From the NCBI GenBank assembly GCA_001789805.1, contig MGAR01000020.1, forward strand, positions 1 to 33,311: DNA of 33,311 bases, in the 5' to 3' direction. The notes below the pieces were generated by a model. That model saw only the letters and a list, made by a program, of their open reading frames with translations. It made no database searches and was not told the origin of the DNA. How positions within the stretch are numbered: the first letter of the stretch is position 1; every line of letters starts with the position of its first letter. Position numbers and translations under genes: made by a program. Positions 14,421 to 30,013 of this stretch are shown here, piece by piece. Source of the stretch: Candidatus Roizmanbacteria bacterium RIFCSPLOWO2_01_FULL_41_22. Its GTDB lineage: Bacteria; Patescibacteriota; Microgenomatia; UBA1406; GWC2-37-13.

Positions 14421-14425
14421 AACGT

Positions 14426-16373: not shown

Positions 16374-16382
16374 ATTCTGCGC

Positions 16383-16396: not shown

Positions 16397-16464
16397 CTTC
16401 GTGTCAAAGACCCTGAACTCTTACAAATAGCAATGCATCTGGACTTAGATATATATTTTTAGGT

Positions 16465-16470
16465 TATAAT
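16465..16470 (+). promoter_or_regulatory. -10 box of the cupin operon
   Basis: Perfect TATAAT, 27 bp before the ATG at 16498. No convincing -35 and no Shine-Dalgarno in the short leader. Confidence 0.4.
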
Positions 16471-16497
16471 AAGAGTGTTAGCAGTTAAATTAAATTT

Positions 16498-16878: not shown

Positions 16879-16897
16879 GTAATGAAATAATCTAGCT

Positions 16898-17239
16898 ATG
16901 CAGTTAATTAATAAAAAGGTTAATCGACAGGAGTTAAAGAAAATGTCCAAACGTACGTTTGGTGGCTTGGTAAAAGCGGTAGTTGACATTAAAGAAGAGA
17001 TTATGGTCGTTGATGCGGCGATGCACGCCGACCAAGAAGATTATTTATTAAAAAATGGCTCAAAGCAGGACGATCTCTGGGGTATAAATTTATACCCCGA
17101 TTTAACTAATGAGGATTTTATTGAGTTTGACTCGATGATAAATGTCCGTCCGCGATTGAATAATTTTTCCCGTCATATCGAAGATAAAAAAATCAGACAA
17201 AAGATAATTACTATTGTTCATAGTCTAATTGAAAAATGA
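16898..17239 (+). CDS. DUF5674 family protein
   Basis: 113 aa of unknown function. It closely follows the pattern I remember for DUF5674: FGGLVKAVVDI, a central GSKQDDLWGINLYPD, then IEFDSMINVRP and a C-terminal helix. No catalytic motif is obvious; the protein is soluble. It follows the cupin gene by 19 bp and overlaps the next gene by 4 bp (ATGA), so the three are probably one operon. Confidence 0.75.
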   Translation: MQLINKKVNRQELKKMSKRTFGGLVKAVVDIKEEIMVVDAAMHADQEDYLLKNGSKQDDLWGINLYPDLTNEDFIEFDSMINVRPRLNNFSRHIEDKKIRQKIITIVHSLIEK

Positions 17240-17568
17240 ATTTATTCCATAATAAACTGCAATCACGCTGGAATAATTTTACGATTTTTGAACAGATGGC
17301 CAATATCGGAGCGGAAGTAGGTAGAACGATCCGCTGGCGTCAAAAAGGCAACCGGGAAATGAGTAAAAACGCATTTTATCGGGCTTTGGAACTTATGGAT
17401 TTTACAATTGACGACCCAAAGAATAAAATCTCTCTTAAGGAAATTCTACGAGTTCGGGAGGCGTTGGTGGACTTTATTATGGGAGAAAATATTTATAAAT
17501 CCACCAATGAAGCTTGGGAGAAATATTTTCTCTACTTCAATCTAGCCGCCAGAAGACTGGTCATTTAA
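17236..17568 (+). CDS. Conserved hypothetical protein (110 aa)
   Basis: A soluble helical protein. The segment QMANIGAEVGRTIRWRQKGN and the later AFYRALELMDFTIDD are, from memory, conserved in a small family common in Patescibacteria. Arg- and Trp-rich patches suggest nucleic-acid or protein contact, but nothing decides it. Its ATG overlaps the stop of the DUF5674 gene, so it is translationally coupled to it. Confidence 0.65.
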   Translation: MNLFHNKLQSRWNNFTIFEQMANIGAEVGRTIRWRQKGNREMSKNAFYRALELMDFTIDDPKNKISLKEILRVREALVDFIMGENIYKSTNEAWEKYFLYFNLAARRLVI

Positions 17569-17689
17569 GATTTATTTTATTTAGCAAACGTCAACACCAA
17601 TCATCAGATAATTTTGAAACATCTGACTCAGTTATTTGGATAGACGCATTTAGAACCCAAGTTATAAACTTTTTGATAAACTTTTAAAT

Positions 17690-17992
17690 ATGTCTTTTGA
17701 ATATCTTTCTATACTTCTATTCTTATTGCTAATATCAATTAGCTTTCATAAAACACAGAAGATTAGAATATTTGACAACCTCAAACACATGCTAATATTC
17801 TATGGAGTTATGTTGTTGGTGGGAATAGTATGGGATAATTTTGCAGTTTATAGAGGTCATTGGTATTATCCAGGAAAAGGGACGCTGGGATTATTCATCG
17901 GATTTATTCCATTAGAGGATTATTTCTTTATAATCATTTGTTCTTATTTTGGACTGGTGTTTTACAAAACAGCACAGAAATTAAAATCTTGA
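17690..17992 (+). CDS. Stand-alone lycopene cyclase domain (CrtYc/CrtYd type)
   Basis: 100 aa with three hydrophobic helices. It matches the heterodimeric lycopene cyclase domain: WDNFAVYRGHWYY after helix 2 and IPLEDYFFII at helix 3, the Pro-Leu-Glu motif considered part of the active centre. In actinobacteria two such domains (CrtYc and CrtYd) form the enzyme; in others they are fused. Here there is one short gene and no other carotenoid gene in view. It may work as a homodimer or on another isoprenoid. TAAACT lies 7 bp before the ATG, a weak leaderless -10. Confidence 0.8.
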   Translation: MSFEYLSILLFLLLISISFHKTQKIRIFDNLKHMLIFYGVMLLVGIVWDNFAVYRGHWYYPGKGTLGLFIGFIPLEDYFFIIICSYFGLVFYKTAQKLKS

Positions 17993-18107
17993 GTGATGAG
18001 CAGTTTTAGATTTCTATAAAAGTCTCAATCTCTTAAGGGTGCTCAACGTTATTTCCATCGAACCAAAAAACACTACTTTTGGATAGATATACTGAAGGAC
18101 AATACGG

Positions 18108-18113
18108 TATAAT
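18108..18113 (+). promoter_or_regulatory. -10 box of the AbiEii-type toxin pair
   Basis: Perfect TATAAT, 9 bp before the ATG at 18123; the mRNA would have at most a 2-3 nt leader. Confidence 0.45.
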
Positions 18114-18122
18114 TTAAGAACT

Positions 18123-18326
18123 ATGTACAACTGGAGCGTAGATACAACTGAACTCAAAAAACATCCGGAACAATATACTATCTGGAGACTCGAACAGCTT
18201 ATTAACTACGGACTTGATGGTGAAAAACTAAAAAAAAATCTTCTGAGAAAGTATTGGAGTAAATTGCGAATTGATCCTCACTATAAAAAATATTTATCCT
18301 TTTTGTTATGGAGCAATCAATCATAA
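18123..18326 (+). CDS. Putative antitoxin partner of the AbiEii-like gene
   Basis: 67 aa, helical, with IWRLEQLINYGLDGEKL and KYWSKLRIDPHYKKYLSFLLW. I remember very similar small proteins sitting upstream of AbiEii-type nucleotidyltransferase genes in Patescibacteria. It overlaps the next gene by 19 bp in a different frame, the usual toxin-antitoxin arrangement. It does not look like the known AbiEi wHTH antitoxin, so the antitoxin role is inferred from position and size. Confidence 0.6.
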   Translation: MYNWSVDTTELKKHPEQYTIWRLEQLINYGLDGEKLKKNLLRKYWSKLRIDPHYKKYLSFLLWSNQS

Positions 18327-18970
18327 CCTCTTCTCAAAAAAAAGTACTTGATATACTAAGAAAGCAAACGGCGCTATCTAACAGATTTTATTTCACCGGT
18401 GGTACCGCATTAGCTGAGTTTTACCTCCATCACAGATTATCAGAAGATTTAGATTTTTTCAGTGAAGAGGAATTTAGTCTGTCGCCAATCAACTCATTTG
18501 TTCATAAACTTTCCGCAGCTCTTAATCTTACAAAAATTACCCATCGAAATCAGTTCGGACTGCATACTTTTTTTCTCCATGCACCCAATGAAGAGCTTAA
18601 AATTGACTTCAACTATTATCCGTTTTCCGCTCTTGAAATAAGAAAAAAATATGACGGACTGGCTGTTGATAGCTTACGAGATATTGCAGTCAATAAACTA
18701 CAAACAATAGCAACACAGCCAAGAAGCAGAGACTTTATTGATTTGTTTTGTATTGTGAAAAAAACAGGTTGGGCCATAGAAGACTTAAGAAAAGAAGCAC
18801 GAAATAAATTTGATTGGTACGTAGATGCTGTGCAACTTGGATCCAGATTTCTGATGGTCAAAGATGTAAAAGATTACCCCCGCATGATTATCCCGTTTGA
18901 TATGAGCCAGTGTGAAGCCTTTTGGATAAAAGAAGCGAAGAAACTTGAAAATGAGATTTTAAAAGAGTAA
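18308..18970 (+). CDS. AbiEii/AbiGii-family nucleotidyltransferase (toxin)
   Basis: 220 aa. The nucleotidyltransferase motif is complete: FTGGTALAEFYL (31-36 for GGTALA), RLSEDLDFFS with D47 and D49, and a third carboxylate at about D100 (LKIDFNYYP). Further on, DIAVNKLQTIATQPRSRDFIDL is the conserved C-terminal segment. AbiEii toxins transfer nucleotides to tRNA or other targets and act in phage exclusion; the family name is established, the target here is not. It overlaps the small upstream gene by 19 bp. Confidence 0.85.
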   Translation: MEQSIITSSQKKVLDILRKQTALSNRFYFTGGTALAEFYLHHRLSEDLDFFSEEEFSLSPINSFVHKLSAALNLTKITHRNQFGLHTFFLHAPNEELKIDFNYYPFSALEIRKKYDGLAVDSLRDIAVNKLQTIATQPRSRDFIDLFCIVKKTGWAIEDLRKEARNKFDWYVDAVQLGSRFLMVKDVKDYPRMIIPFDMSQCEAFWIKEAKKLENEILKE

Positions 18971-18986
18971 AGTAAGCCAGATCGTC

Positions 18987-19181
18987 ATGGTCATCAAGGC
19001 TTATCTGAAAAAACAACATACTCGACAATTTACTTCCAGAGTGCAAGTTTTTTACGAAGCTGGAAACTATGAGCATGGCGTATATGCCCGCAAATTGAAG
19101 CGCGACTTGAGCGGTAAGAGGAAGCAGAAAGCCCACTGGGCTGGCTTGGCAGTATCCCGGCTTATCGAATCAGCAGTTTAG
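18987..19181 (+). CDS. Small hypothetical ORF (64 aa), doubtful
   Basis: A frame starting MVIKAYLKKQHTRQF that is basic and ends RLIESAV. I do not recognise it. It is richer in G+C than the toxin gene before it and has no clear promoter or ribosome site. It may be a remnant left of a larger gene. It is the only candidate in the 262 bp between the toxin gene and tRNA-His. Confidence 0.25.
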   Translation: MVIKAYLKKQHTRQFTSRVQVFYEAGNYEHGVYARKLKRDLSGKRKQKAHWAGLAVSRLIESAV

Positions 19182-19232
19182 CACGGAGTATCAAGCTATT
19201 TGCAATGTTCGAAATGAACAAAATGCATTAGG

Positions 19233-19306
19233 GGTGGTGTACGGGAGTCGAACCCGCTGATATCGCCTCCACAGGGCGACGCCTTAGCCGTTCGGCATAC
19301 ACCACC
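19233..19306 (-). tRNA. tRNA-His (GTG)
   Basis: On the minus strand a full cloverleaf: acceptor GGTGGTGT with ACACCACC (8 pairs, including the G-1:C73 pair special to tRNA-His), anticodon stem TCGCC/GGCGA around loop CTGTGGA with anticodon GTG, and T arm GCGGG-TTCGACT-CCCGT. The 3' CCA is not encoded (CCT follows C73). Confidence 0.95.
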
Positions 19307-19313
19307 ATTAAGG

Positions 19314-19348
19314 AAAACTCAAAATTTAAAGTGCAAAACTCAAAACCA
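19314..19348 (+). repeat. 7-bp periodic array between tRNA-His and era
   Basis: Five heptads AAAACTC, AAAATTT, AAAGTGC, AAAACTC, AAAACCA: degenerate in their last three bases but strictly in phase. Confidence 0.55.
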
Positions 19349-19360
19349 AGTCAGACTCGG
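19346..19360. repeat. CCAAGTCAGACTCGG element
   Basis: Imperfect palindrome joined to the end of the heptad array. It is related to CCAAGTCAAACTTGG at 11552. Confidence 0.4.
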
Positions 19361-19438
19361 TCAGAGTTAAAATTAAATGAGCTTAATCCTTATTTGTATT
19401 ATAGCAAACAAGAAAGGGCAGGAAAGCATGAAAGAAGT

Positions 19439-20305
19439 TTAGCTATAAAGGGTTTCCTGCCAGTGAGGGTCAGTTTCAACCGTCAGATCAAGAAAGACTT
19501 TTTTACCGATCGCCAGCGCAATTTCCTTGCGGGCATAGCTTCCCAGCTCTTTGATCTTCCTGGCGCCGGCACCAATCAACATCTTTTTGTAGCGGTCATG
19601 AGTGGTAAGGATACGAGCTTTGATATAGGTAATGCCGTTTTTTCTTTCAGCAATCTCATCTACCACCGCTGTTGTTGTGTAGGGGATCTCTTCCCCCATC
19701 ATCAAGAAAACTTTTTCCCGAATCAGTTCGGCGATAAAAGTTTTGCTGTCCATATTAAGAAGCGGATAAACACTTGTCTCCAGGTCTTTATCGGCGGCTT
19801 TTTCTGGTAAAAGGTCAAAAATTTGGGCCAAAAGCGGCTTAATATGCAGTTTTTTTAAGGCGGAAATACTAAAGACATAGTTAAATTCGTCTTCCAGAAA
19901 TTTATACTGCGGCAGGTAGGAGTATTCCGTCATGTCAACCTTATTCACAACCAGAATCTTGGGTTTGTCGATTTTGCGCACAATCCCCAGCACCTTGGCT
20001 TCCTCAAAATCGCGCTTGCGGGTATGGTCGACCATATAAACCACTACGTCCACCGCCTGGTTGACGGCTTTCAAAGTTTTTTCGTTGATCTTTTTTGACA
20101 GCTCATCTTTAGTTTTTCCAAAAATGCCCGGTGTGTCAACAAACACAATCTGCCCACGCTCTTCGGTATATAGTCCGCGGATCGGAAAACGGGTAGTCTG
20201 GGGTTTGGGTGAGGTGATGGCCACTTTCTGACCAATGACGTTATTGACGAATGTTGATTTGCCCACATTAGGGCGGCCTACTAAAAGCACGGTACCATGT
20301 TTCAT
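19439..20305 (-). CDS. era: GTPase Era
   Basis: Ribosome-assembly GTPase that binds the 3' end of 16S rRNA. 288 aa from the start chosen: G1 GRPNVGKS (10-17), switch region PKPQTTR, G3 DTPG (57-60) and G4 NKVD (121-124). The C-terminal KH domain has IGAGARKIKELGSYARKEI, then KVFLDLTVETDP. The open frame extends 39 codons further upstream, but those codons span the promoter; TACAAT sits 6 bp before the ATG at 20305. The usual neighbours (rnc, recO) are absent. Confidence 0.95.
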   Translation of the reverse strand: MKHGTVLLVGRPNVGKSTFVNNVIGQKVAITSPKPQTTRFPIRGLYTEERGQIVFVDTPGIFGKTKDELSKKINEKTLKAVNQAVDVVVYMVDHTRKRDFEEAKVLGIVRKIDKPKILVVNKVDMTEYSYLPQYKFLEDEFNYVFSISALKKLHIKPLLAQIFDLLPEKAADKDLETSVYPLLNMDSKTFIAELIREKVFLMMGEEIPYTTTAVVDEIAERKNGITYIKARILTTHDRYKKMLIGAGARKIKELGSYARKEIALAIGKKVFLDLTVETDPHWQETLYS

Positions 20306-20311
20306 GAGAGT

Positions 20312-20341
20312 ATTGTATACCCACCGTAGTTCAATTTGCAA
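20312..20341 (-). promoter_or_regulatory. Promoter giving leaderless era mRNA
   Basis: Minus strand: TTGCAA (20336-20341), 18 bp, TACAAT (20312-20317), then 6 bp to the ATG. Confidence 0.6.
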
Positions 20342-20452
20342 AAGCAAAATGAACGTACGGAGGGTTATGCCGCTGAAAGATCGAGTATATTTTTGCCATT
20401 TCATCTGCAAGCGGTATAACACGTCAGCACCCTAATCAGCCGGTTTTTTTGG

Positions 20453-20458
20453 TAAAAT
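20453..20458 (+). promoter_or_regulatory. -10 box of tRNA-Gln
   Basis: TAAAAT about 21 bp before the mature 5' end of the tRNA; no clear -35. Confidence 0.35.
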
Positions 20459-20479
20459 AGAGCTGTACTTTTAAGCCTT

Positions 20480-20553
20480 TGGGGGATCGTCTAATGGTAG
20501 GACAACAGACTTTGGATCTGTTTATCTTGGTCCGACTCCAAGTCCCCCAGCCA
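20480..20553 (+). tRNA. tRNA-Gln (TTG)
   Basis: Acceptor TGGGGGA pairs with TCCCCCA. The anticodon stem ACAGA/TCTGT surrounds loop CTTTGGA with anticodon TTG, and the T arm is present. The U1-A72 pair is typical of bacterial tRNA-Gln. G73 and the 3' CCA are encoded. Confidence 0.95.
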
Positions 20554-20608
20554 AAATAAAAAATTAAGAAAACTGGAAAATATCAAAGAGTTTTGGAGAA
20601 CTTGGATA

Positions 20609-20637
20609 TTGACAGACAGCGCATGAGTAGTTACAAT
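20609..20637 (+). promoter_or_regulatory. Consensus promoter of mazEF
   Basis: TTGACA (20609-20614), 17-bp spacer, TACAAT (20632-20637). The expected start is about 4 nt before the mazE ATG. Confidence 0.7.
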
Positions 20638-20638
20638 G

Positions 20639-20657
20639 TGATTACATATGATTACAT
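20639..20657 (+). promoter_or_regulatory. TGATTACAT direct repeat over the mazE start
   Basis: Two copies of TGATTACAT (20639-20647 and 20649-20657), 10 bp apart, one helical turn. They cover the transcription start and the start codon, where MazE-type proteins bind to repress their own operon. Confidence 0.4.
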
Positions 20658-20887
20658 CATTTATACCTATCGGCAATTCACGTGGAATACGTATTCCTAA
20701 ACCACTTCTCAATGAAAGTAATCTCGAAGGCGAGGTCGAACTATTGGTGAAAAAAGGTGAAATAAGAATCATTGCAGTTCCCAAAAAAACCAAACTCACT
20801 AAAGATACGCTCTTATTGTCTGAACAGGCGCTTATTACTGATTGGAATAATCCAGAAGAGGATATTGCATGGAAAAGTTTGCAGTAG
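20648..20887 (+). CDS. AbrB/MazE-type antitoxin
   Basis: 79 aa. The N-terminal swapped-hairpin DNA-binding fold is clear from FIPIGNSRGIRIPKPLL, followed by EGEVELLVKKGEIRI. The acidic C-terminal tail (DWNNPEEDIAWKSL) is the part that wraps around the toxin in this family. It overlaps the toxin gene by 19 bp. It should bind its own promoter, probably at the direct repeat over the start codon. Confidence 0.88.
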   Translation: MITSFIPIGNSRGIRIPKPLLNESNLEGEVELLVKKGEIRIIAVPKKTKLTKDTLLLSEQALITDWNNPEEDIAWKSLQ

Positions 20888-21195
20888 GATCTATAGTTCT
20901 TGTGTTGTTTCCCTTCTTGAATTTAAAGGGGCAGAAAGTTCGTCCGGCCATGGTTCTTGCCCAGGTAGAATTTAACAATTTAGTTTTATGTCAGATAACC
21001 TCAAAGCCCTACTCGAGCAAAACAGCGATTCGACTAGAATCATCAGATTTTATCAAAGGTGCGTTACCTGTTGTAAGTTTTGTAAGACCGGATAAATTAT
21101 TTACCGCTGACACAGCTATTATTAAAGACATCGCCGGTGTACTAACTCAAAAAAAAAGACGAGAAATAATAAAAAAAGTCAGGAATATTTTTTGA
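20869..21195 (+). CDS. MazF/PemK-family toxin (endoribonuclease)
   Basis: 108 aa. Family segments: GSIVLVLFPFLNLKGQKVRPAMVL (beta1-beta2 with the catalytic Arg), CQITSKPY, LPVVSFVRPDKLFTAD (the second conserved block with Ser/Arg) and the C-terminal helix KKRREIIKKV. These toxins cut mRNA or tRNA at short sequences. It is coupled to the antitoxin by a 19-bp overlap and convergent with the FTR1 gene. Confidence 0.88.
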   Translation: MEKFAVGSIVLVLFPFLNLKGQKVRPAMVLAQVEFNNLVLCQITSKPYSSKTAIRLESSDFIKGALPVVSFVRPDKLFTADTAIIKDIAGVLTQKKRREIIKKVRNIF

Positions 21196-21250
21196 ATCTT
21201 AAAAAAAGAGTTGCATTTTTTAAAACACACTTATTGAAACATAAACTATA

Positions 21251-22090
21251 TTATTTAATATGTTCATTGATAAATTCTAATTTTTTCTTTCTGAAAAAAA
21301 TAAAATAAACTATCTCTATGTACAAAAACATAATCATAAGCCGGGGGAAACTGAATCCTTGATCGATTCCAAAAAATCCTTGTATCAGGTGTCCGATAAG
21401 AGTGTCTGTGTTTGGCAAGAAATGCAGATTGAAAGACAGAATATGGGAAAGATCAATATGGACATATTCTTCAAGAAGCTCGGTAATTCCGTGCTGTGTT
21501 AGCGATGCCCCAAGGAGAATAATCATATATTCGGTCGCCTTGAATATTTTTCCAATAGGAAATTTAATATATGCCATCAGAGTCAGTGTTCCAAGGGCGG
21601 TTGCGGCCGCAAATCCTGCAAGAAGTCCGATAAAGTTCTGCATGAAAGCTGAAAATAATGAGACACTTGCGGTAAAAAGGGCAATTTCCAATCCTTCACG
21701 AAGTACGAGAAATACAATAGTAAGGAATAACGACAGATCAAATATATTTTTTTGTATTTTTTGATGAGCAGTTATTAAAGCAGTTCCTCTTCCTTTCCGG
21801 ATAACCGAATGAAGTGAGAAAACGACGTAGGCGATAAACAATCCTGAAAATATCATAAGATAACTTTCCAGCAATTCGGAATTTGTTTCCGTGAAAATAT
21901 TTTTCGCACGATCTCCAAATAAATACACAATTGTAGAAAGAAGAAGAGAGAGAATGACTCCAATGGCTGCAGCAAACCATATTTCCGTTTCTTTTTTGAG
22001 ATTAAGTTTTCGTGATATGCCCAAAAAAACGCCAACGATTAAAAATGCCTCAAGAAATTCCCGAAATGCGATGACCGCAGTAGTGATCAT
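21251..22090 (-). CDS. FTR1/EfeU-family iron permease
   Basis: 279 aa, about seven membrane helices. Both signature REXLE motifs are present: REFLE (R10-E14) in helix 1 and REGLE (R131-E135) in helix 4. These carry Fe(III) in yeast Ftr1 and bacterial EfeU. No EfeO or EfeB partner lies nearby, so how iron is delivered or oxidised is unknown. It is the only obvious metal transporter in the window. No Shine-Dalgarno is visible. Confidence 0.85.
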   Translation of the reverse strand: MITTAVIAFREFLEAFLIVGVFLGISRKLNLKKETEIWFAAAIGVILSLLLSTIVYLFGDRAKNIFTETNSELLESYLMIFSGLFIAYVVFSLHSVIRKGRGTALITAHQKIQKNIFDLSLFLTIVFLVLREGLEIALFTASVSLFSAFMQNFIGLLAGFAAATALGTLTLMAYIKFPIGKIFKATEYMIILLGASLTQHGITELLEEYVHIDLSHILSFNLHFLPNTDTLIGHLIQGFFGIDQGFSFPRLMIMFLYIEIVYFIFFRKKKLEFINEHIK

Positions 22091-22123
22091 ATAACTTTTT
22101 TGAAACTAATAATGTTTAACCAC

Positions 22124-22150
22124 AAAAAAACGACCTAATTAATTGGTCGT
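22124..22150 (-). terminator. Intrinsic terminator on the minus strand
   Basis: Minus strand: stem ACGACC/GGTCGT around an AT-rich loop, followed by seven T. It sits 34 bp upstream of the FTR1 start, so it probably ends transcripts from the upstream membrane-protein gene. It could also lie in the FTR1 leader. Confidence 0.6.
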
Positions 22151-22176
22151 CTATATATACATATCTTTTCTTTAAT

Positions 22177-22197
22177 CTATTACTAATTAAGTAATAG
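22177..22197. repeat. Perfect 8-5-8 inverted repeat CTATTACT/AGTAATAG
   Basis: Loop AATTA. It lies upstream of the FTR1 gene and terminator and could be an operator. It does not match a Fur box. Confidence 0.35.
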
Positions 22198-22295
22198 TAA
22201 AGGATTAGTTTAACAAAATCAAGCGATAATGAAAAAATGGAACACGCCTTTTTTATACCGTCTCAAATGTCTCATTTGGCCTGGAGAGTGGAACA

Positions 22296-22347
22296 TTTTT
22301 GGCTTGTAATTACAGGACTGTCTGGGTCTAACCCGACCCGCTCAGCA
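22296..22347 (+). pseudogene. tRNA-like 3' half remnant (Thr-like)
   Basis: A segment resembling the anticodon loop through 3' end of a tRNA: GGCTTGTAATTAC (loop CTTGTAA, anticodon TGT), then a T arm like GTCTGG-GTCTAAC-CCGAC and an acceptor-like CCGCTCAGCA. The 5' half and acceptor pairing are missing and the stems are imperfect, so it is not a working tRNA. It is followed after 5 bp by the 19-bp repeat shared with 24454. Confidence 0.3.
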
Positions 22348-22352
22348 GAAAA

Positions 22353-22371
22353 AAATATCCGCAACAAAATA
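22353..22371 (+). repeat. 19-bp direct repeat, copy A
   Basis: AAATATCCGCAACAAAATA, identical to 24454-24472. Similarity continues a further 10-12 bp leftward (CTCAGCAGAA versus GTCAGTAGAA). Confidence 0.7.
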
Positions 22372-22397
22372 AAATTTAAGCTACTTTGACGATATAA

Positions 22398-22667
22398 TCA
22401 GAGCATGTTCCTGAAAACTCCATTATACCAATTTTTGAGATACTCTCCGCTAATATAGCCTAAGCCTGCCAAACATATTGGAACTAATGAATAGAGGACA
22501 TCTGGTTTCTCCGGCGGCATTAATGGTTGGAGCAGGGGGAGGCCAAGTATGCCCAGGGCCAAGAAAACTCCGGCGGTCACAACCTCTGGTTTGTGTTGTT
22601 TAACAAAATCAACTGCATTCTTTAATGCTTGCCGGGGCTGGCAATTGGGTTTAATACGTCTCTCCAT
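22398..22667 (-). CDS. Small two-helix membrane protein, hypothetical
   Basis: 89 aa: a basic N-terminus (MERRIKPNCQPRQALK), then two hydrophobic segments at about residues 31-50 and 58-75. No family recognised. The frame could begin two codons earlier at a GTG, but that codon lies against the -10 box; the ATG at 22667, 7 bp behind TATAAT, fits the leaderless pattern. The nearest terminator on this strand is at 22124-22150. Confidence 0.55.
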   Translation of the reverse strand: MERRIKPNCQPRQALKNAVDFVKQHKPEVVTAGVFLALGILGLPLLQPLMPPEKPDVLYSLVPICLAGLGYISGEYLKNWYNGVFRNML

Positions 22668-22674
22668 AAGCACG

Positions 22675-22703
22675 ATTATATCTTATAATATTTTAATTAT
22701 CAA
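22675..22703 (-). promoter_or_regulatory. Consensus promoter giving leaderless mRNA
   Basis: Minus strand: TTGATA (22698-22703), 17 bp, TATAAT (22675-22680), then 7 bp to the ATG at 22667. Confidence 0.65.
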
Positions 22704-22844
22704 CTTTAGATATTCCCCGGAATCATTGGCGACGTGAAGGGAATTCTTGCTCCCCGGCAATAAAATTTTAGAGCTCCGAAACCATCTTTTTAAGCAATAT
22801 GGGACTAAGATGTTCGAACCGTAATATATAATCATAATTAAAAT

Positions 22845-23756
22845 ATGAAAATTATCAGCGTTGATAAGGTAGTAATTTATCCAGAACATGTTTTGGAGCT
22901 AAAAAAACTGGGTGATGTGACTATCTACAACGATATTCCTGATGAAGCGGAAGGGATAAAGAGGATCAGAGACGCAGATATTGTTATTGACAACTGGTTT
23001 AAGATGCCATCTCAAGTGATCCGCGCTTGTTCAAAACTACAAATGATCTGTGTTGCGGCAACAGGATATGACTGGGTAGATATGGATGAAACAAGAAAAA
23101 GAAAGATTGTCGTTTCAAATTCGCCCGGTTATGGTACAGAGGCGGTTGGGGAGCATACCATTGGTTTGCTGCTTCACACTATTCGCAGAGCTTCTGAAGC
23201 AGAAAAAGATATTGCAAAAGGGATTTGGGATCCTATGAAATATCGAGGCCATGAACTGCAAGGAAAAACTTTGGGAATCATTGGGTTTGGGTCAATCGGA
23301 AGAAGGGTCGCGGAAATCGCAGAAAAAGGCTTTGATATGAAAATACTTTTTGTAAATTCAAAATCATCAACTTCTGATTTTGAGAAACTTCTGCAAGAAA
23401 GCGATTGTATCACGATCAATTGTCCGCTAACAGAAAAAACCCGAGGAATGGTGGGGGATCGGGAGTTTTCCATGATGAAAACAGGAGTCGTGATCGTGAA
23501 TACCGGTCGAGGAGCAATAGTAGATGAACAATCTTTAATCAGCAACATCGAGTCAGGCAAAGTTTTTGCTGTTGGACTTGATGTATTTCCAAAAGAACCG
23601 ATAAATGAAAAATATCCGCTTTTTCGGTTTCCTAATGTTACCGTTACCCCTCATATTGGTTTTAATACCGAAGAAGCAGAATATAGATTGTCAGAAATTG
23701 TCGTTAATAATATTAAAAATTTTGTTGAAAATCACCCGATACACACCGTTTCTTAA
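22845..23756 (+). CDS. D-2-hydroxyacid dehydrogenase (SerA/GhrB-like)
   Basis: 303 aa NAD(P)-dependent reductase of 2-oxo acids. Order: catalytic-domain N-terminus, GYDWVDMDE, AVGEHTIGLLLHTIRR, Rossmann motif GIIGFGSIGRRVAE, NCPLTEKTRG, VNTGRGAIVDE (catalytic Arg), VFAVGLDVFPKEP (Glu) and VTPHIGFNT (catalytic His). It could act on phosphoglycerate, glyoxylate, hydroxypyruvate or pyruvate; sequence alone does not say which. There is no serC or serB nearby. TATAAT (22827-22832) lies 12 bp before the ATG. Confidence 0.88.
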   Translation: MKIISVDKVVIYPEHVLELKKLGDVTIYNDIPDEAEGIKRIRDADIVIDNWFKMPSQVIRACSKLQMICVAATGYDWVDMDETRKRKIVVSNSPGYGTEAVGEHTIGLLLHTIRRASEAEKDIAKGIWDPMKYRGHELQGKTLGIIGFGSIGRRVAEIAEKGFDMKILFVNSKSSTSDFEKLLQESDCITINCPLTEKTRGMVGDREFSMMKTGVVIVNTGRGAIVDEQSLISNIESGKVFAVGLDVFPKEPINEKYPLFRFPNVTVTPHIGFNTEEAEYRLSEIVVNNIKNFVENHPIHTVS

Positions 23757-23761
23757 TAATT

Positions 23762-23839
23762 ATGGGAAATAAAAAAGCCCTTATCATTCATGCATGGTAT
23801 AGTAAACCAGAAAGTAACTGGTATCCTTTGTGTAATTAA
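23762..23839 (+). pseudogene. 5' fragment of an RBBP9/YdeN-type serine hydrolase gene
   Basis: Only 25 codons: KALIIHAWYSKPESNWYP and a few residues, then TAA. The opening is the characteristic first strand of the RBBP9/YdeN alpha/beta hydrolases (IIHGW...NWYPWL), which are normally about 180 aa. The rest, including the catalytic Ser, His and Asp, is gone. It starts 5 bp after the dehydrogenase stop, so the intact gene was probably co-transcribed with it. Confidence 0.55.
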
Positions 23840-23939
23840 TCATAAAAAGAATAAGTGTTATACGAACTTTGAATTATCCACAAAACATAAACTATGACTT
23901 GAAAATTACCACAAAACAGGATAGCGAGAACATTATTAT

Positions 23940-24389
23940 TTGACATCATTTGAATCATTTAAAAAGCAGATACTCGACCTGCTTGGTGAATTGATCACAG
24001 AGGTCAATATCAAGAGTAAACAACCTGCAAAAACAAGCAAAGGTCGCAAAGAACAGGAAAAAAGGTTTGATGAACTTATGAAACGAGCTGATGTTCAAAT
24101 CTTTGTTGCTGAAGAAGAAAACAGGCTTCTTGGCGTAGCTGATCTGTTTATTCTTCCTCTTATTCGAAGAGGATATTACCAAGGATATCTTGAAGATTTA
24201 GTTGTGACCGCGGGTATGCGGGGAAAAGGGATAGGATCAAAGCTACTTTCAGCCATAAAAACCTACTGCAAAGACCATAACATATCAGTAATGAAATTAA
24301 ATAGCGGTGTCTATTTTCCAGAGGCACATAGATGCTACGAAAAACATGGTGGAGTTTTTACAGAAAAACTATTTCGGTTTGACCTATGA
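23940..24389 (+). CDS. GNAT-family acetyltransferase, 5' end probably frameshifted
   Basis: 149 aa from a TTG codon. The acetyl-CoA core is clear: IFVAEEENRLLGVADLFILP, YLEDLVVTAGMRGKGIGSKLL (the R/Q-x-x-G-x-G/A loop as RGKGIG) and FPEAHRCYEKHGG near the end. GNAT proteins usually begin a few residues before the first strand. Here those residues (KITTKQDSENIII) are encoded just upstream at 23902-23940 but in another frame, joined at a T-run. So the true gene may start at the TTG at 23899 and carry a one-base loss. The substrate is unknown. Confidence 0.7.
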   Translation: MTSFESFKKQILDLLGELITEVNIKSKQPAKTSKGRKEQEKRFDELMKRADVQIFVAEEENRLLGVADLFILPLIRRGYYQGYLEDLVVTAGMRGKGIGSKLLSAIKTYCKDHNISVMKLNSGVYFPEAHRCYEKHGGVFTEKLFRFDL

Positions 24390-24453
24390 GTATTTGGGAA
24401 ACTTTACACCTTGCTGGATACGTTCTCACATGATAAACCAGTGTCAGTAGAAG

Positions 24454-24472
24454 AAATATCCGCAACAAAATA
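24454..24472 (+). repeat. 19-bp direct repeat, copy B
   Basis: Identical to 22353-22371; the two copies enclose 2.1 kb with a dehydrogenase, a gene fragment and the GNAT gene. Confidence 0.7.
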
Positions 24473-24495
24473 CAAATTGTGGAAAGTAACTCAAT

Positions 24496-25167
24496 ATGAC
24501 TTATTATTTAAAGGCAAAGCAAAAAGGAAATAAAGGCGAAGCTCTTGTTGAAAGTGTTCTATCTGAATATGCAATAGTGCATAAAATTGATGGCTCAAAA
24601 GACGTTGGTATTGATATGATTTGCCAGTGGGTTAATGGCGAAAAACCGACACAACTGATGTTCGGAGTGCAAGTTAAAACTTTAAATACGAAACTTGAAC
24701 TTAGGCGTAAAATAAGTAGACTAAATTTGTTAGAAGAATATAAAGGTAGTGTTTCAATAAAACAATCAACCCTAGATTACTGGAAAGGGTTTGATTTTCC
24801 AGTATTTGTTTTTTTGGTAGATCTGCAAACTTCGAAAATTTTTTACAAAAGATACACTTCAATACTACATGGGTTAATAAAACACACAGAGGAACCATTT
24901 TATTTAGTAGTACAAAATAATAAGTTTCAAGCTTATGTCGAGGGGGATAAACGGACGTGGGGATTTTGTAGAGATCTTTTTTTTGATCATCTTCGTTGTC
25001 AGTGCAATAAAGGAATTCTAAGTGGAATAGATCCTAATGATTTAGGATTAAGAGGTTGGCCTAAAGAAACGCTTTATAAGGGAGTATTTGATCAATATAA
25101 GCAACAAATTAGCTCAACCTATAAAAAGTATCAAAGATTTAGCAGATTCTTTCTGCCAAGTACCTAA
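24496..25167 (+). CDS. DUF4365 nuclease-like protein
   Basis: 223 aa. The N-terminal domain has the DUF4365 pattern, a restriction-endonuclease-like fold: KGEALVESVLSEY (E15), KDVGIDMICQW (D40), PTQLMFGVQVKT (Q59, K61), i.e. E...D...QxK. The C-terminal 100 residues are unique to it. Such proteins are often near defence and mobile genes, and this one follows the repeat-flanked region. No methylase or partner is adjacent. Low GC compared with neighbours. Confidence 0.75.
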   Translation: MTYYLKAKQKGNKGEALVESVLSEYAIVHKIDGSKDVGIDMICQWVNGEKPTQLMFGVQVKTLNTKLELRRKISRLNLLEEYKGSVSIKQSTLDYWKGFDFPVFVFLVDLQTSKIFYKRYTSILHGLIKHTEEPFYLVVQNNKFQAYVEGDKRTWGFCRDLFFDHLRCQCNKGILSGIDPNDLGLRGWPKETLYKGVFDQYKQQISSTYKKYQRFSRFFLPST

Positions 25168-25349
25168 TTTTTTTAGACAATAATATGGTAAAATTTCAAT
25201 ATAATAAACAAACAAATTTAGGGTTATTCAAGTGACTTATTCTGGGAAAGAAAATCCTCTTTTTTCCAAAATTGCGGAAATGATAAAAGTATTAGGTATT
25301 ACCAAATATTATAACTATTGCTCTCAATGAAAGTTTGAAAAAGACAATA

Positions 25350-26087
25350 TTATAACTTCATAACCTCTTCCATTTTTAAGTACTCATCTATTTCCTTTTT
25401 GGTTATTTTATGCGTATTAACTACTAAATAGTGATATTTTAAAATTTTCTTTTTCTTACTTATTATGTCAAGAAAATCATCTATTATTTTTCCGACCGAG
25501 ATATTAAAAGACATAAGAATAGTAAAAAAGATGTAATTTCTTCCGAATTCGATTTCTTCGATTTGAGAATTAGTTTTAGTGACAATAGTTATCAGATCTT
25601 GCTCTATGATTTTTTTTGCATTTTTGACCAAAAATTTGTTATGTTTTGAGCCGATGACTACAAAATATCGGATCTTGTCTCCTTTTCTTCCCATGGGTGA
25701 CATAATCATATCGCGACCATCTTCATAAACTACGTTTTCAACTTTAAACTGGAGCTCTTTGAGCGCCAACGTAGCCCACTCCTTTAAATTTGTCTGAGCG
25801 CTGTCTAAATATTGTCTCAAAATGTCAAAGCATTCTTTAGTAGCAAAATGGCCTAAAAGAAAAAGTAGTTTCTTTTTGATTTCCTCTGCGACTTTTGGAT
25901 CAAGTAAAAGTCCCTTGCTCTTTTTTATCACCATTTCATAATCATATTTATCAATATCAATTTGATCATGATAATTTATATATTCTTGATGGATCTTTTC
26001 ATCTATCTGGATATTGAAATTGTTCGATAGCGCTTGATCAACAGCCTCAAAAATCGGTTTAAGAAGTTTTCTTGTATTGCTTTTCAT
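25350..26087 (-). CDS. Hypothetical protein with HEAT-like N-terminal half
   Basis: 245 aa, not recognised. The N-terminal half is helical and resembles HEAT-type repeats (LLFLLGHFATKECFDILRQY, then WATLALKELQ). The C-terminal half is mixed alpha/beta and ends in a Lys-rich helix. No signal peptide or membrane helix. It is AT-rich, stands alone, and is convergent with the DUF4365 gene across a 182-bp spacer. The accessory position and composition suggest recent acquisition, but this is inference. Confidence 0.65.
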   Translation of the reverse strand: MKSNTRKLLKPIFEAVDQALSNNFNIQIDEKIHQEYINYHDQIDIDKYDYEMVIKKSKGLLLDPKVAEEIKKKLLFLLGHFATKECFDILRQYLDSAQTNLKEWATLALKELQFKVENVVYEDGRDMIMSPMGRKGDKIRYFVVIGSKHNKFLVKNAKKIIEQDLITIVTKTNSQIEEIEFGRNYIFFTILMSFNISVGKIIDDFLDIISKKKKILKYHYLVVNTHKITKKEIDEYLKMEEVMKL

Positions 26088-26101
26088 AATACTTTACTTG
26101 A

Positions 26102-26126
26102 AACCTCGGGCGTCAGCCCGTAGGTT
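26102..26126. repeat. Bulged hairpin, left element
   Basis: AACCTCGGGC, loop GTCA, GCCCGTAGGTT: ten pairs with one bulged T. The shape is like REP or IS200/IS605 end hairpins. It lies upstream of the gene at 25350-26087. Confidence 0.45.
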
Positions 26127-26237
26127 GTTTATATCATTCTGCTGATATTGTATCAAAAAGATGACTTGATTTTTAGATTGTCGACAAGCGATAAAAACTC
26201 ATATATCAAAATTTTTAATTTACTACAAAAAAAGAAG

Positions 26238-26258
26238 CCGCGGACTATTAGTCCACGG
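26238..26258. repeat. Mismatch hairpin, right element
   Basis: CCGCGGACT, loop ATT, AGTCCACGG: nine positions with one C/A mismatch. It lies 112 bp from the left element; no transposase lies between them. Confidence 0.45.
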
Positions 26259-26329
26259 AGTAGTCACACCTTCGTTAAGAAATCAACACAGGCGGGAACT
26301 GTTTAATTAGAACGAGCATGAATAGAATG

Positions 26330-26335
26330 TATAAT
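26330..26335 (+). promoter_or_regulatory. -10 box that fixes the HAD gene start
   Basis: TATAAT followed by 6 bp and the ATG at 26342. The ATGs at 26318 and 26327 lie upstream of the expected transcript start. Confidence 0.6.
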
Positions 26336-26341
26336 AGGAGC

Positions 26342-26989
26342 ATGATTAAAGCACTCATTTTTGACTACGATGGCGTCATCAATAACGGTGATCTGGCGCG
26401 ATTCAGATTTTTCCAGCAAGCCTTTCAGCAGCACAAAAGCAAACTCGACTCGTCGCTATTTCCACAGACGATGGGGAAGACGACCAAAGAGGTATTTGAT
26501 CAAGTGATTGATAAAACTATTCCTAATAAGATCAAGCAGGCGGTTCTGGATGACTATCATACTCAATATAAAAAGCAGAGTAGTAAATATTTGCTGCCGA
26601 TTACGCCAACAATTGAGTTTATCAAAGAATATCAGGGCGAGAAAAAACTGGCGGTGACTTCCAATACTGGACGCGATCTGGTGTTTCCTGGCCTAAGACA
26701 GTTTGGTATTGACCGACGATTGGCTTTAGTGGTGACTAAGGAGATGGTGGCTTGCCGTAAACCAAATCCAGAGATATATCTGCTTACTTTAAAAAAACTG
26801 CAGCTAGATAAAAGTGAGGCAATCGTCATTGAAGATTCGCCAGTCGGAGTGTCGGCAGCGACTCAGGCGGGGATTAGCTGCTATGTTTTCCTTAGTTTGA
26901 TAAATAGTCAGTCCGATTTTGTCGACACGCCAGTTTGCGGATTTATTCATTCAAAAGAAGATTATCGGAAGCTAGCAGATCGGTTATAA
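26342..26989 (+). CDS. HAD-family phosphatase (beta-phosphoglucomutase-like)
   Basis: 215 aa. HAD motif I FDYDG (nucleophile D8, acid D10), motif II TSNTG, motif III Lys around CRKPNPEIY and motif IV IEDSPVGVSAA. A helical cap lies between residues about 15 and 85. The family includes beta-phosphoglucomutase, phosphoglycolate phosphatase and other small-molecule phosphatases. It is followed by a second HAD-like gene after 12 bp, so the two may share a pathway. Confidence 0.85.
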   Translation: MIKALIFDYDGVINNGDLARFRFFQQAFQQHKSKLDSSLFPQTMGKTTKEVFDQVIDKTIPNKIKQAVLDDYHTQYKKQSSKYLLPITPTIEFIKEYQGEKKLAVTSNTGRDLVFPGLRQFGIDRRLALVVTKEMVACRKPNPEIYLLTLKKLQLDKSEAIVIEDSPVGVSAATQAGISCYVFLSLINSQSDFVDTPVCGFIHSKEDYRKLADRL

Positions 26990-26990
26990 T
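26985..26990 (+). promoter_or_regulatory. -10 box overlapping the HAD gene stop
   Basis: TATAAT includes the stop codon TAA of the upstream gene and lies 11 bp before the ATG at 27002, so the second HAD gene may also be transcribed on its own. Confidence 0.4.
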
Positions 26991-27001
26991 AGGTTTTAAA
27001 A

Positions 27002-27973
27002 ATGACTAACATTCACTGGAACAAGCAAGTCAAGCTGATTATCTCAGATGTTGACGAAACAGTAGCTGATTTATATTTACCAGCAGAGCCTCCAATGATA
27101 AGTGAACTGATCTCGCTTTTACATGAAGGCAAAGCGATCTTCTTTGTCACCGGCCAAGGAGTAAAAAGTATATCGTGGAGAATTGTTGATCATATCCCCA
27201 AACCCTTACGTCGCCGGATTTTGATTGGCCACTGCAGTGGAGCGGAGGTGTGGGGTTTTGATCACAAGGGAGATTTGCTTGATCAACCTTATTACAGCGT
27301 TTATAAAGAGGTGGTTTCAGAATCGCAAAAGAAGAAGTGGCGAGAGTTGGTGCAAAAGATTATCGCCGAGTTTAAGCTAAAAGTCTATCCAACAATGCCG
27401 GTTTTTCAGTTTACCCAAAAGACTAAGGGTGATCCATTGGCGATCATGTTGGAAGACCGCGGTCCGCAGATCACCCTTGAGGTGGTCAACGGATATGACT
27501 TAACAGTAGAAGATATTACCAAGTTAGCGGTGAGTATTCCGGAAACTAAAGGCAGTTATGATTTACGCATTCCGATTTTAGAGCGAGCAGATGAGCTTTT
27601 TAAAGAAGCCAATCTACCAATTACTCCCCGGATGGCCGGAGTGTTTGCGGTTGATTTTGCGATCAAGGGCGTTTCCAAAACTACGGCGATCAAACTGGCG
27701 CTGGAAAACGAACAGGTATTATCCAGGTTGGGTTTGAGTCAACAAGATGTGGAGACTCCCCAGTTTCTTGAGGTCTGGGGTGATAAATTTTCCATAATTC
27801 GCGGGGGAACCGACCGCCATATGAGCGAGGCCCTACCACGAAAAGTGCGTTCAATTGATTTTCGGGAAGAAAATCCGGCGGAACTTCTCCAAGGATATAA
27901 CACCATAGTCTGGGACGGAAAAAAACACCTCCATCACGGTTTATTGGAGTATTTGCAATCACGCTATAAATAG
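27002..27973 (+). CDS. HAD-like hydrolase (Cof/sucrose-phosphatase-like)
   Basis: 323 aa. Motif I is LIISDVDETVAD (D16, D18), motif II FVTGQG. The C-terminal lysine region is KGVSKTTAIKLAL, and the late motif is VWGDKFSIIRGGTDRHM. The order (cap inserted between motifs II and III) is the Cof/type IIB plan. It is probably a sugar-phosphate phosphatase. Position after another HAD gene suggests related substrates; neither can be identified from sequence. Confidence 0.75.
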   Translation: MTNIHWNKQVKLIISDVDETVADLYLPAEPPMISELISLLHEGKAIFFVTGQGVKSISWRIVDHIPKPLRRRILIGHCSGAEVWGFDHKGDLLDQPYYSVYKEVVSESQKKKWRELVQKIIAEFKLKVYPTMPVFQFTQKTKGDPLAIMLEDRGPQITLEVVNGYDLTVEDITKLAVSIPETKGSYDLRIPILERADELFKEANLPITPRMAGVFAVDFAIKGVSKTTAIKLALENEQVLSRLGLSQQDVETPQFLEVWGDKFSIIRGGTDRHMSEALPRKVRSIDFREENPAELLQGYNTIVWDGKKHLHHGLLEYLQSRYK

Positions 27974-28034
27974 CTTTGCTCACATTTCATCATTATCAAA
28001 TCATTTACTGATCAATCGTCCGAAAAAAAGAGAC

Positions 28035-28040
28035 TATACT
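28035..28040 (+). promoter_or_regulatory. -10 box of the BCP gene
   Basis: TATACT, 12 bp before the ATG; predicted leader about 5-6 nt. Confidence 0.35.
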
Positions 28041-28052
28041 AAAAATAACACT

Positions 28053-28546: not shown

Positions 28547-29188
28547 ATGTCTCATATATTTTTAGATGAATCTGGAGATTTTGGATTTAATCCTAAAAAG
28601 AAGAACTCTAAATTTTTCATAATTACCGTGGTAGCTTTTGAAAACCAAAAACCAATTGAAAGAATTGTTAAAAAAACTCACTCAGAACTGAGAAAGAGAG
28701 TAAAACGATTAAGCGGAGGAGTATTGCATTGTGTTAAAGAAAAGCCCGTAACCAGAAAGCGCTTGTTAAATAGAATAAATAAGATAGAGTGTTCGATTAT
28801 GACGATTTATCTTAATAAGAAAAACGTTTACACAAAGCTTAAAGACGAAAGACATATTCTCTATAATTACGTTACCAACATACTATTGGACCGTATTTTG
28901 CAAAAAAAGTTAGTTGATAGTACAAAAGAGATCATTCTTATCGCTTCAAAAAGAGAAACAAATAAGTTTCTGAATGAAAATTTCAAGTCATATTTAGAAA
29001 ACCAAACAAAATATAATCATAAAACTAATATCCAAATTGTAATCAAATCACCTTCAGAAGAAAAAGGGCTTCAAGCGGTAGATTTTGTTAGTTGGGCAAT
29101 ATTTCGAAAATACGAAAAAAATGATTCGTCTTACTATGAATTAATTAAAAAACACATAGTGGAAGAAAACGGATTATTTACTTCTTAA
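28547..29188 (+). CDS. DUF3800 protein
   Basis: 213 aa. The DUF3800 opening IFLDESGDFG (D7, E8, D11) and the late GLQAVDFVSWAI are clear; together these acidic residues make an RNase H-like metal site in the proposed fold. Function is unproven; the genes are often in accessory or defence settings. It is AT-rich and Lys-rich compared with the peroxiredoxin before it, suggesting separate origin. Confidence 0.8.
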   Translation: MSHIFLDESGDFGFNPKKKNSKFFIITVVAFENQKPIERIVKKTHSELRKRVKRLSGGVLHCVKEKPVTRKRLLNRINKIECSIMTIYLNKKNVYTKLKDERHILYNYVTNILLDRILQKKLVDSTKEIILIASKRETNKFLNENFKSYLENQTKYNHKTNIQIVIKSPSEEKGLQAVDFVSWAIFRKYEKNDSSYYELIKKHIVEENGLFTS

Positions 29189-29301: not shown

Positions 29302-29481
29302 TTGACAGCTCAAAAACCTAACAAAGCTCATTTGCAAGGTACCCCTACCCCGATCCGGACTCCCCGAGGATCAGGTTTTGGGTTAAACCCGAGGTTGAGA
29401 CGACGTCGACCAAGACTTATTTGCCGATATTGGGCGTTGGGGGTAATCGGCGGGATTATTATCAGTTTTTTAGTGAAGTAA
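29302..29481 (+). CDS. Possible small membrane protein (59 aa, TTG start)
   Basis: A frame free of stops for 89 codons but without ATG. From the TTG at 29302 it reads MTAQKPNKAHLQGTP, then an Arg-rich stretch (NPRLRRRRPRLICRYW) and a hydrophobic C-terminal segment (ALGVIGGIIISFL) ending VK. The layout suits a tail-anchored peptide. It may be a remnant of a larger gene since coding-like sequence continues upstream of the TTG. It is the only coding candidate in the 375-bp space 29189-29563. Confidence 0.3.
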   Translation: MTAQKPNKAHLQGTPTPIRTPRGSGFGLNPRLRRRRPRLICRYWALGVIGGIIISFLVK

Positions 29482-29500
29482 TATTATTTCTCTATTGTAA

Positions 29501-29530
29501 TTAGTTTATTATTTCGAAATAATAAACTAA
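29501..29530. promoter_or_regulatory. 30-bp perfect palindrome before the four-helix protein
   Basis: Half-sites TTAGTTTATTATTTC and its exact reverse complement, no spacer. It lies 33 bp before the ATG at 29564 and just before the strong ribosome site. It could be an operator or a 5'-UTR hairpin. Confidence 0.55.
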
Positions 29531-29544
29531 GTTATTTTAATCAA

Positions 29545-29554
29545 AAGGAGGTGA
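29545..29554 (+). promoter_or_regulatory. Perfect Shine-Dalgarno AAGGAGGTGA
   Basis: Ten bases complementary to the 16S 3' end, 9 bp before the ATG. It is the strongest ribosome binding site seen in the window, where most first genes have none. Confidence 0.75.
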
Positions 29555-29563
29555 GAGAATAAT

Positions 29564-30013
29564 ATGGACAATAAAACTGGTAACGATATTATTGGCACGA
29601 TGGAAAAATGGTATGCTAAAGCTCCTGTACTTCCAACCAATGTTAAAGAGGTGATTGTCAAGTTTGCCCCGATTTTAGCCTTGGTTTTTGGAATCTTGGG
29701 TGTAGTTGGTGCGATCGGCGGTCTGGGACTGCTGACGGTGTTTTCCCCATTGGCGATGTTGGGCGGAGCAAAAACAATATCATCATACGGCGGCGGATTT
29801 ATCTCCGCTTTATTCTGGCTTGCTTCTGCAGTGCTGATGTTAATTGCCTATCCGGGCATCAATGCGCGAAAGCAAAAAGGCTGGAACTGGCTTTTTTGGA
29901 GCGAGGTGGTCAGTATCGTTGGAACATTGCTCTCCTACGCGATTTTGTCAGGAATAGTCGGTGGCTTGATTGGTTTTTATATTTTGTTTCAGGTCAAGTC
30001 GTACTATAAATAA
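29564..30013 (+). CDS. Conserved four-helix membrane protein, probably highly expressed
   Basis: 149 aa. Hydrophobic segments at about residues 30-50, 78-98, 106-124 and 125-143, with a Gly-rich link. The pattern WYAKAPVLPTNVKEVIVKFAPILAL at the start and GFYILFQVKSYYK at the end matches a family I recall as common in Microgenomates. Function unknown. The strong Shine-Dalgarno and palindromic leader suggest abundant, regulated synthesis. It is convergent with the malic enzyme gene. Confidence 0.7.
   Translation: MDNKTGNDIIGTMEKWYAKAPVLPTNVKEVIVKFAPILALVFGILGVVGAIGGLGLLTVFSPLAMLGGAKTISSYGGGFISALFWLASAVLMLIAYPGINARKQKGWNWLFWSEVVSIVGTLLSYAILSGIVGGLIGFYILFQVKSYYK

What the first reader, a model, noticed from the sequence alone, without database searches (positions are those of the whole stretch)
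29501..29564. 30-bp perfect palindrome plus perfect Shine-Dalgarno before a membrane protein
A gapless 30-bp palindrome is very unlikely by chance even in AT-rich DNA. It is followed by AAGGAGGTGA, while most first genes here have no ribosome site. The gene is probably produced at high level with a structured leader (stability hairpin) or a strong operator. The protein family is common in this lineage but uncharacterised.
Basis: partly seen in the sequence, partly recalled or inferred. Interest (0 to 1): 0.52.

Follow-up and report, generated by a model that had tools for sequence, protein, structure and literature searches.

The report
Perfect palindrome at imported gene's start
A rare 30-base perfect DNA palindrome, with a second imperfect one beside it, sits where transcription of a small membrane-protein gene probably starts; the gene and its strong ribosome-binding site look imported from a neighbouring bacterial lineage, while the palindrome is peculiar to this genome and probably a control site or leader hairpin.

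Summary
A gapless 30-bp palindrome lies at 29501-29530, an 11-nt match to the 16S rRNA tail at 29544-29554, and the ATG at 29564. It is the longest perfect palindrome in the window. In another 107 kb of the same genome the longest is 18 bp.

Two things explain the surroundings. First, the strong Shine-Dalgarno (SD) site belongs to the gene, not the genome. The contig is native, but the 149-aa protein groups with Levybacteria-type homologues, where 35 of 40 rows have a strong SD; only 4 of 55 in the other group do. The simplest reading is horizontal transfer. Second, the palindrome did not come from any relative held: none of the closest homologues has it, nor does any other place in this genome.

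New here: an imperfect 24-bp palindrome (29471-29494) lies 6 bp upstream. Together the two hold four copies of one 9-mer (GAAATAATA), two inverted pairs around a -35-like TTGTAA. The best promoter places the palindrome between -35 and the transcription start, so I favour a DNA operator (about 0.4) over a 5' leader hairpin (about 0.3) or a mutational relic (about 0.25). No transcript data or same-genus genome were available, so the palindrome's function is unproven.

The parts
29471..29494 (.). second, imperfect 24-bp palindrome TAGTGAAGTAATATTATTTCTCTA (10 of 12 pairs; one of the two misses is a G-T)
   Evidence: 1 of 2000 shuffles of 29440-29500 has such a match (chosen after seeing it); 4 such places in the window (one of them the big palindrome), 9 in the 107-kb sample
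29475..29524 (.). four copies of the 9-mer GAAATAATA: 29475 (+, 1 mismatch), 29482 (-), 29507 (-), 29516 (+)
   Evidence: no other place in the window or the 107-kb sample has even 3 copies in 60 nt; for any 9-mer, 7 of 500 shuffles of the region reach 4 copies
29495..29500 (+). candidate -35 box TTGTAA, between the two palindromes
   Evidence: relatives have TTGCAA or TTGATT-type -35 boxes at a similar distance from the SD
29501..29530 (.). perfect gapless 30-bp palindrome
29518..29523 (+). candidate -10 box AATAAT, inside the right arm (17 bp from TTGTAA); would put transcription start near 29530
   Evidence: 9 of 12 consensus matches, number of such sites in the region near chance
29544..29554 (+). 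Shine-Dalgarno AAAGGAGGTGA, 11 nt complementary to the 16S tail
29564..30013 (+). 149-aa helical membrane protein of an unnamed family, Levybacteria-type

Best explanation
The stretch 29471-29563 is the expression start of a small membrane-protein gene that this genome gained from a Levybacteria-type donor. The strong SD came with the gene and makes it one of the very few SD-driven genes of this host. The palindrome is a later, host-specific feature. With its imperfect neighbour it forms a cluster of four inverted 9-mer half-sites around the -35 box and over the spacer and -10 box of the promoter. I think it most likely works as DNA: an operator for a dimeric or multimeric regulator that blocks or assists RNA polymerase, with the strong SD giving high output when the promoter is free. 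Well supported: palindromes, half-sites, SD, 16S complementarity, the tree placement. Inferred: the direction of transfer, the promoter, the transcription start, the existence of a regulator. I put the SD and transfer part at about 0.85 and the operator part at about 0.4.
For: Tree: the protein sits inside the f18 (Levybacteria-type) group with 100/100 support; holding it with the host's own family is rejected at p-AU 0.026 (same placement in the 95-row tree). The contig itself is native: GltX is 69% identical to G010 of the same family, and seven other genes of the window lie in the same G010 stretch. Strong SD (5 nt or more) in 35 of 40 rows of that group against 4 of 55 in the other. Promoter: TTGTAA-17-AATAAT ends 22 nt before the SD; in four of the five closest relatives (L080, L087, L088, L082) the best match ends 14-23 nt before the SD and the -35 is TTGCAA or TTGCAT. 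The symmetry runs through the centre with no spacer, which an RNA loop does not need. Four half-sites in 50 nt, two inverted pairs, centres 33 bp apart.
Against: No other copy of the site exists in the genome, so a regulator would have a single target, and I identified no regulator gene beside it. Palindrome hexamers are not enriched in homologous promoters (49 seen, 48.8 expected), so no conservation supports it. The promoter match is only 9 of 12, and another equally good match (TTATCA-17-TATTAT, 29459-29487) lies upstream and would put the palindrome in the mRNA. Perfect 30-bp operators are unusual (recalled). The shuffle tests on the second palindrome and the 9-mer were made after seeing them.
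Confidence: 0.42

Rival explanations
1. 5' leader hairpin. Transcription starts upstream (about 29494) and the palindrome forms a 13-bp RNA stem with a UCGA loop between the 5' end and the SD. It protects the mRNA from 5'-end-dependent decay and leaves the SD open, as in the ompA and aprE leaders.
For: The RNA hairpin is stable for its composition (-9.8 kcal/mol, z about -5; -9.1 kcal/mol, 0 of 200 shuffles). Sequence just before the SD folds better than chance in the SD-bearing homologues without the window: mean z -0.96 against -0.10, -0.24 and 0.05 in shifted segments, paired Wilcoxon p 0.0004, and against other strong-SD genes p 0.011; 7 to 10 of 34 rows pass p 0.05 depending on the shuffle draw. 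An upstream promoter match of equal score exists.
Against: The five closest rows in the tree do not share it: L080, L088, L082 and L083 have no significant hairpin and L087 only a weak one. Some homologous hairpins look to me like dispersed repeats (L055, L067, L074). The upstream promoter would lie 58 nt from the SD (homologues with a match: 19 of 21 at 14-39, L067 57, L074 81; 13 of 34 had no match) and lacks the TTG of the -35. An RNA hairpin does not need a self-complementary loop. Rows are related, so the p-values are optimistic.
Confidence: 0.3
2. Mutational relic. Template switching copied TTAGTTTATTATTTC backwards on itself in AT-rich DNA, giving a perfect, spacer-free palindrome that happens to lie at a promoter and has no role yet.
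For: Perfect and spacer-free, with a further copy of TATTATTTC 25 bp upstream that could have taken part. Not found in the homologues examined nor in the rest of the genome. Chance alone is unlikely in one window but not in a scan of very many genomes.
Against: Its position, exactly between a -35-like box and the SD, and the adjacent second palindrome are more than this needs.
Confidence: 0.25
3. Intrinsic terminator of the upstream DUF3800 gene.
For: It lies downstream of that gene, which ends at 29188.
Against: Not reported by the terminator scan, no G-C rich stem, no T run directly after the stem on either strand, and it is 313 bp from the gene end, directly before another start.
Confidence: 0.03

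Closest known systems
5' stem-loop stabilised leaders (E. coli ompA and papA, B. subtilis aprE)
   Same: Hairpin-forming sequence followed by a strong ribosome-binding site. [quoted passage not shown] ompA, papA and aprE were seen only in its reference list.
   Different: Here the transcript start is unknown and the best promoter match lies inside the palindrome, so the hairpin may not be transcribed. Stem is A-T rich, loop is itself self-complementary.
Palindromic operators overlapping -35/-10 of bacterial promoters (dimeric repressors in general; recalled)
   Same: Inverted repeats spanning spacer and -10 of the candidate promoter.
   Different: 30 bp and perfect, no other site in the genome, no regulator identified, not conserved in homologous promoters.
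Strong Shine-Dalgarno genes in lineages that rarely use SD (PMC5397173 and PMC3155529, listing and start of abstract only)
   Same: Intact anti-SD in 16S, few genes with a strong SD.
   Different: In this genome the strong SD appears to come with a gene of lateral origin.

Membership tests
Shine-Dalgarno ribosome-binding site | complementary to the 16S 3' tail of the same genome, a short distance before the start codon | tested here: met
   AAAGGAGGTGA 9 nt before ATG; 16S ends GGATCACCTCCTTTC
5' stem-loop stabilised leader (ompA/aprE type) | hairpin is within the transcript, near its 5' end | not testable with these tools
   no transcript data; two equal promoter matches, one on each side of the question
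5' stem-loop stabilised leader (ompA/aprE type) | stable stem, SD not sequestered by it | tested here: met
   -9.8 kcal/mol stem of 13 bp separate from the SD; in a longer segment the SD can pair with other bases
5' stem-loop stabilised leader (ompA/aprE type) | structure kept in orthologues by compensating changes | tested here: inconclusive
   hairpin tendency raised in the SD group but no homologous stem in the closest rows; no same-genus genome was among the relatives searched
Operator of a dimeric DNA-binding regulator | inverted repeat overlapping the promoter | tested here: inconclusive
   overlaps TTGTAA-17-AATAAT, but the promoter is only predicted
Operator of a dimeric DNA-binding regulator | site shared with other promoters of the regulon or with orthologous promoters | tested here: not met
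   no other site up to 3 mismatches; hexamers not enriched in 32 homologous upstream regions
Intrinsic terminator | G-C rich stem directly followed by a T run | tested here: not met
   not among the 4 terminator-like sites found

The most novel reading that the evidence does not exclude
A host-specific switch built onto an imported gene: four inverted copies of a 9-mer in two back-to-back palindromes, placed around the -35 and over the -10 of a promoter, serve as binding sites for an unknown regulator or as a supercoiling-sensitive cruciform, gating one of the few strong-SD genes in a reduced genome that hardly uses SD.
Probability: 0.12. Interest if true: 0.55.

Novelty: new member of a known kind. 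Interest (0 to 1): 0.36.

Why it matters
Candidate-phyla bacteria have small genomes and little known gene regulation. This locus shows a strong SD that seems to travel with a gene between lineages that treat SD differently, and a symmetrical control-site candidate that exists once in the genome. If the operator reading holds, it gives a clean, testable regulatory element in bacteria where few are known. If not, it is an example of how a perfect palindrome can arise at a promoter. The protein family, widespread and without a Pfam or NCBIfam name here, is worth study in its own right because its Levybacteria-type members mostly carry near-perfect SDs.

Tried and rejected
Led nowhere: exact search for the 26-bp core in viral contigs, 0 hits. 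Pfam and NCBIfam for the protein, 0; scanning 42 members against Pfam gave only scattered weak matches, 2 members at most per family among the 25 families shown. PDB sequences: nothing better than E 0.87. Fold: confident model (pLDDT 93.8), but Foldseek best E is 0.08 (MprF, probability 1.00) and VIA-align Z is at most 8.8, in the range the tool warns is common for helical bundles; no family claimed.

Rejected: contamination of the contig by Levybacteria (GltX and seven further genes place it with the host's own family). Rejected: my own first reading that a strong SD is nearly private to this family in Levybacteria; the whole-genome count shows 7 to 23 such sites per f18 genome (32 searched), 3 in this genome, 1 to 16 in the 16 f1 genomes searched (this one included), control counts 0 to 4. 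Rejected: that the decayed reading upstream (29340-29481, ending GVIGGIIISFLVK*) shows replacement in place of the host's own homologue; short hydrophobic tails are too common, and the G010 homologue lies on another contig than the GltX stretch. Not pursued: terminator.

Limits: start codons of homologues were chosen by script. Five of the 40 rows of the SD group lacked a scored SD (L081, L090, L097, L100, L102) and were left out of the hairpin test; L081 has AAGGAGGTGA further upstream, so its start may be misread. Of the 39 strong-SD stretches fetched as controls, 4 were dropped (2 family members, 2 with reading frames under 45 aa). In the SD survey the best start within 40 codons was taken, which biases towards finding SDs. 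Motif and promoter scores use recalled sigma-70 hexamers.

Full report
What is there. The palindrome TTAGTTTATTATTTCGAAATAATAAACTAA is at 29501-29530, 15+15 with no spacer. The SD AAAGGAGGTGA is at 29544-29554 and the ATG at 29564. The palindrome is the longest perfect one in the window (next 20 bp). Markov simulations of the window gave at most 22 bp in 100 runs, and of the local 83 nt at most 20 bp in 2000 runs. In 106,893 other bases of the genome only one perfect palindrome reaches 18 bp. With up to 3 mismatches neither the 30-mer nor its 20-bp core recurs in the 1.0-Mb assembly.

A second palindrome. Six bases upstream lies TAGTGAAGTAATATTATTTCTCTA (29471-29494), symmetrical in 10 of 12 pairs. 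Both palindromes contain the same 9-mer: GAAGTAATA at 29475 (one mismatch), TATTATTTC at 29482 and 29507, GAAATAATA at 29516. No other 60-nt stretch of the window or of the 107-kb sample has even three copies. Asked without choosing the 9-mer, 7 of 500 shuffles of 29471-29563 hold four copies of some 9-mer, so this is suggestive, not overwhelming, and it was noticed after the fact. Genome-wide the arrangement TATTATTTC-N(0-12)-GAAATAATA occurs only here; the inner motif of the second palindrome has four more places at two mismatches, with a control count of 4 per strand.

The SD. The genome's 16S rRNA ends GGATCACCTCCTTTC, so 11 nt can pair. Of 67 first genes in 140 kb of this genome, one has 8 or more nt of AAGGAGGTGA: this one. 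In the whole genome AGGAGGTGA-N(2-9)-ATG occurs three times: this gene, one secreted-protein-like gene (L161) and one place followed by only 30 codons. Among 16 genomes of the host's own family f1 (this one included) the number is 1 to 16; among 32 of family f18, 7 to 23; reversed-pattern controls 0 to 4. In f18 genomes G108 and G114 the genes with such SDs look, by my reading of their sequences, like small heat-shock proteins, ATP synthase subunit c, small stress-type and secreted proteins. That fits abundant proteins but is not a measurement.

Where the gene comes from. Of 96 genomes searched (this one included), 50 have a homologue; of 73 f18 genomes, 40. The closest named relatives are Candidatus Levybacteria. 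In a tree of 95 homologues the window protein lies in a group of 40 rows made otherwise of f18 and Levybacteria rows; 35 of the 40 have a strong SD; of the other 55 rows 4 have one. In a 35-row tree the window protein falls with f18 at 100/100, and holding it with f1 is rejected at p-AU 0.026. At least four f18 genomes (G133, G137, G145, G152) carry the other type, so transfers or ancient duplicates go both ways. The contig is native: GltX is 69% identical to G010, and PGK, GAPDH and five more genes of the window lie in the same G010 stretch. The host has no second homologue in the 93%-complete assembly. The simplest reading is a Levybacteria-type gene received with its SD.

Where transcription starts. 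The scan finds two candidates upstream of the SD with 9 of 12 matches, a count near chance: TTATCA-17-TATTAT (29459-29487) and TTGTAA-17-AATAAT (29495-29523). Among 32 SD-bearing homologues the enriched words include CTTGCA, TTGCAA and AATCAA (TTGATT), that is -35-like boxes, and the promoters of four of the five closest relatives end 14-23 nt before the SD (the fifth, L083, 32). TTGTAA-17-AATAAT ends 22 nt before the SD and fits; the other would lie 58 nt away. So I favour the promoter that the palindrome overlaps. The transcription start would be near 29530 and the hairpin would not be in the mRNA.

The hairpin option. As RNA the palindrome gives a 13-bp stem, -9.8 kcal/mol, z about -5. In the 34 other SD-bearing homologues the 45 nt before the SD have mean z -0.96; segments 45, 90 and 135 nt further up have -0.10, -0.24 and 0.05; 51 homologues without SD have -0.23. 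Against 35 other strong-SD genes (mean z -0.22) the difference has p 0.011, and against shifted segments p 0.0004, ignoring relatedness. The stems share no sequence, some look like dispersed repeats (my judgement), and of the five rows nearest the window only L087 shows one, weakly. So a leader hairpin is a real rival. Its model would be the ompA and aprE leaders (PMC3997798, passages seen).

The protein. 149 aa, predicted with high confidence as a bundle of helices (pLDDT 93.8), with no Pfam or NCBIfam match and no convincing fold match; MprF is the top Foldseek hit at E 0.08 and one of several near Z 8.

Verdict. Real, rare and well placed, but of unproven function. The SD half of the finding is explained by lateral origin. 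For the palindrome I commit to a DNA operator at about 0.4, leader hairpin 0.3, relic 0.25. Paper searches for SD or leaderless genes in candidate phyla found little; I make no claim that nothing is in print.

Noticed in passing
window 13088-28052: In G010 the homologues of GltX and the AhpC/TSA protein lie about 1 kb apart (L202); in the window about 15 kb lie between them, with tRNA-His and tRNA-Gln and many short reading frames. Looks like an inserted or rearranged block.
   Followed up: partly
L109:9277-9309 (same genome, contig C6): The only other long hairpin in the 107-kb sample: 16-bp arms with one base between, before a gene with an AGGAGGT site whose start resembles a ribonucleotide reductase (recalled). 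It is followed by TTT and may be a terminator.
   Followed up: partly
L162-L200 (G108, G114): In Levybacteria-type genomes a set of roughly 20 genes carries near-perfect SDs; by sequence many look like stress-related, secreted or otherwise abundant proteins. Could serve as a predictor of high expression in these bacteria.
   Followed up: partly
window 29340-29481: A Pro/Thr-rich reading with a hydrophobic tail (ending GVIGGIIISFLVK*) that changes frame; looks like a decayed surface-protein gene.
   Followed up: partly
window 28547-29188: DUF3800 gene next to the membrane-protein gene; a 43% identical DUF3800 also lies near the homologue in L071 (G126), on the other side.
   Followed up: no
window 17079-17098: 20-bp perfect palindrome GGGGTATAAATTTATACCCC inside a reading frame.
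   Followed up: no
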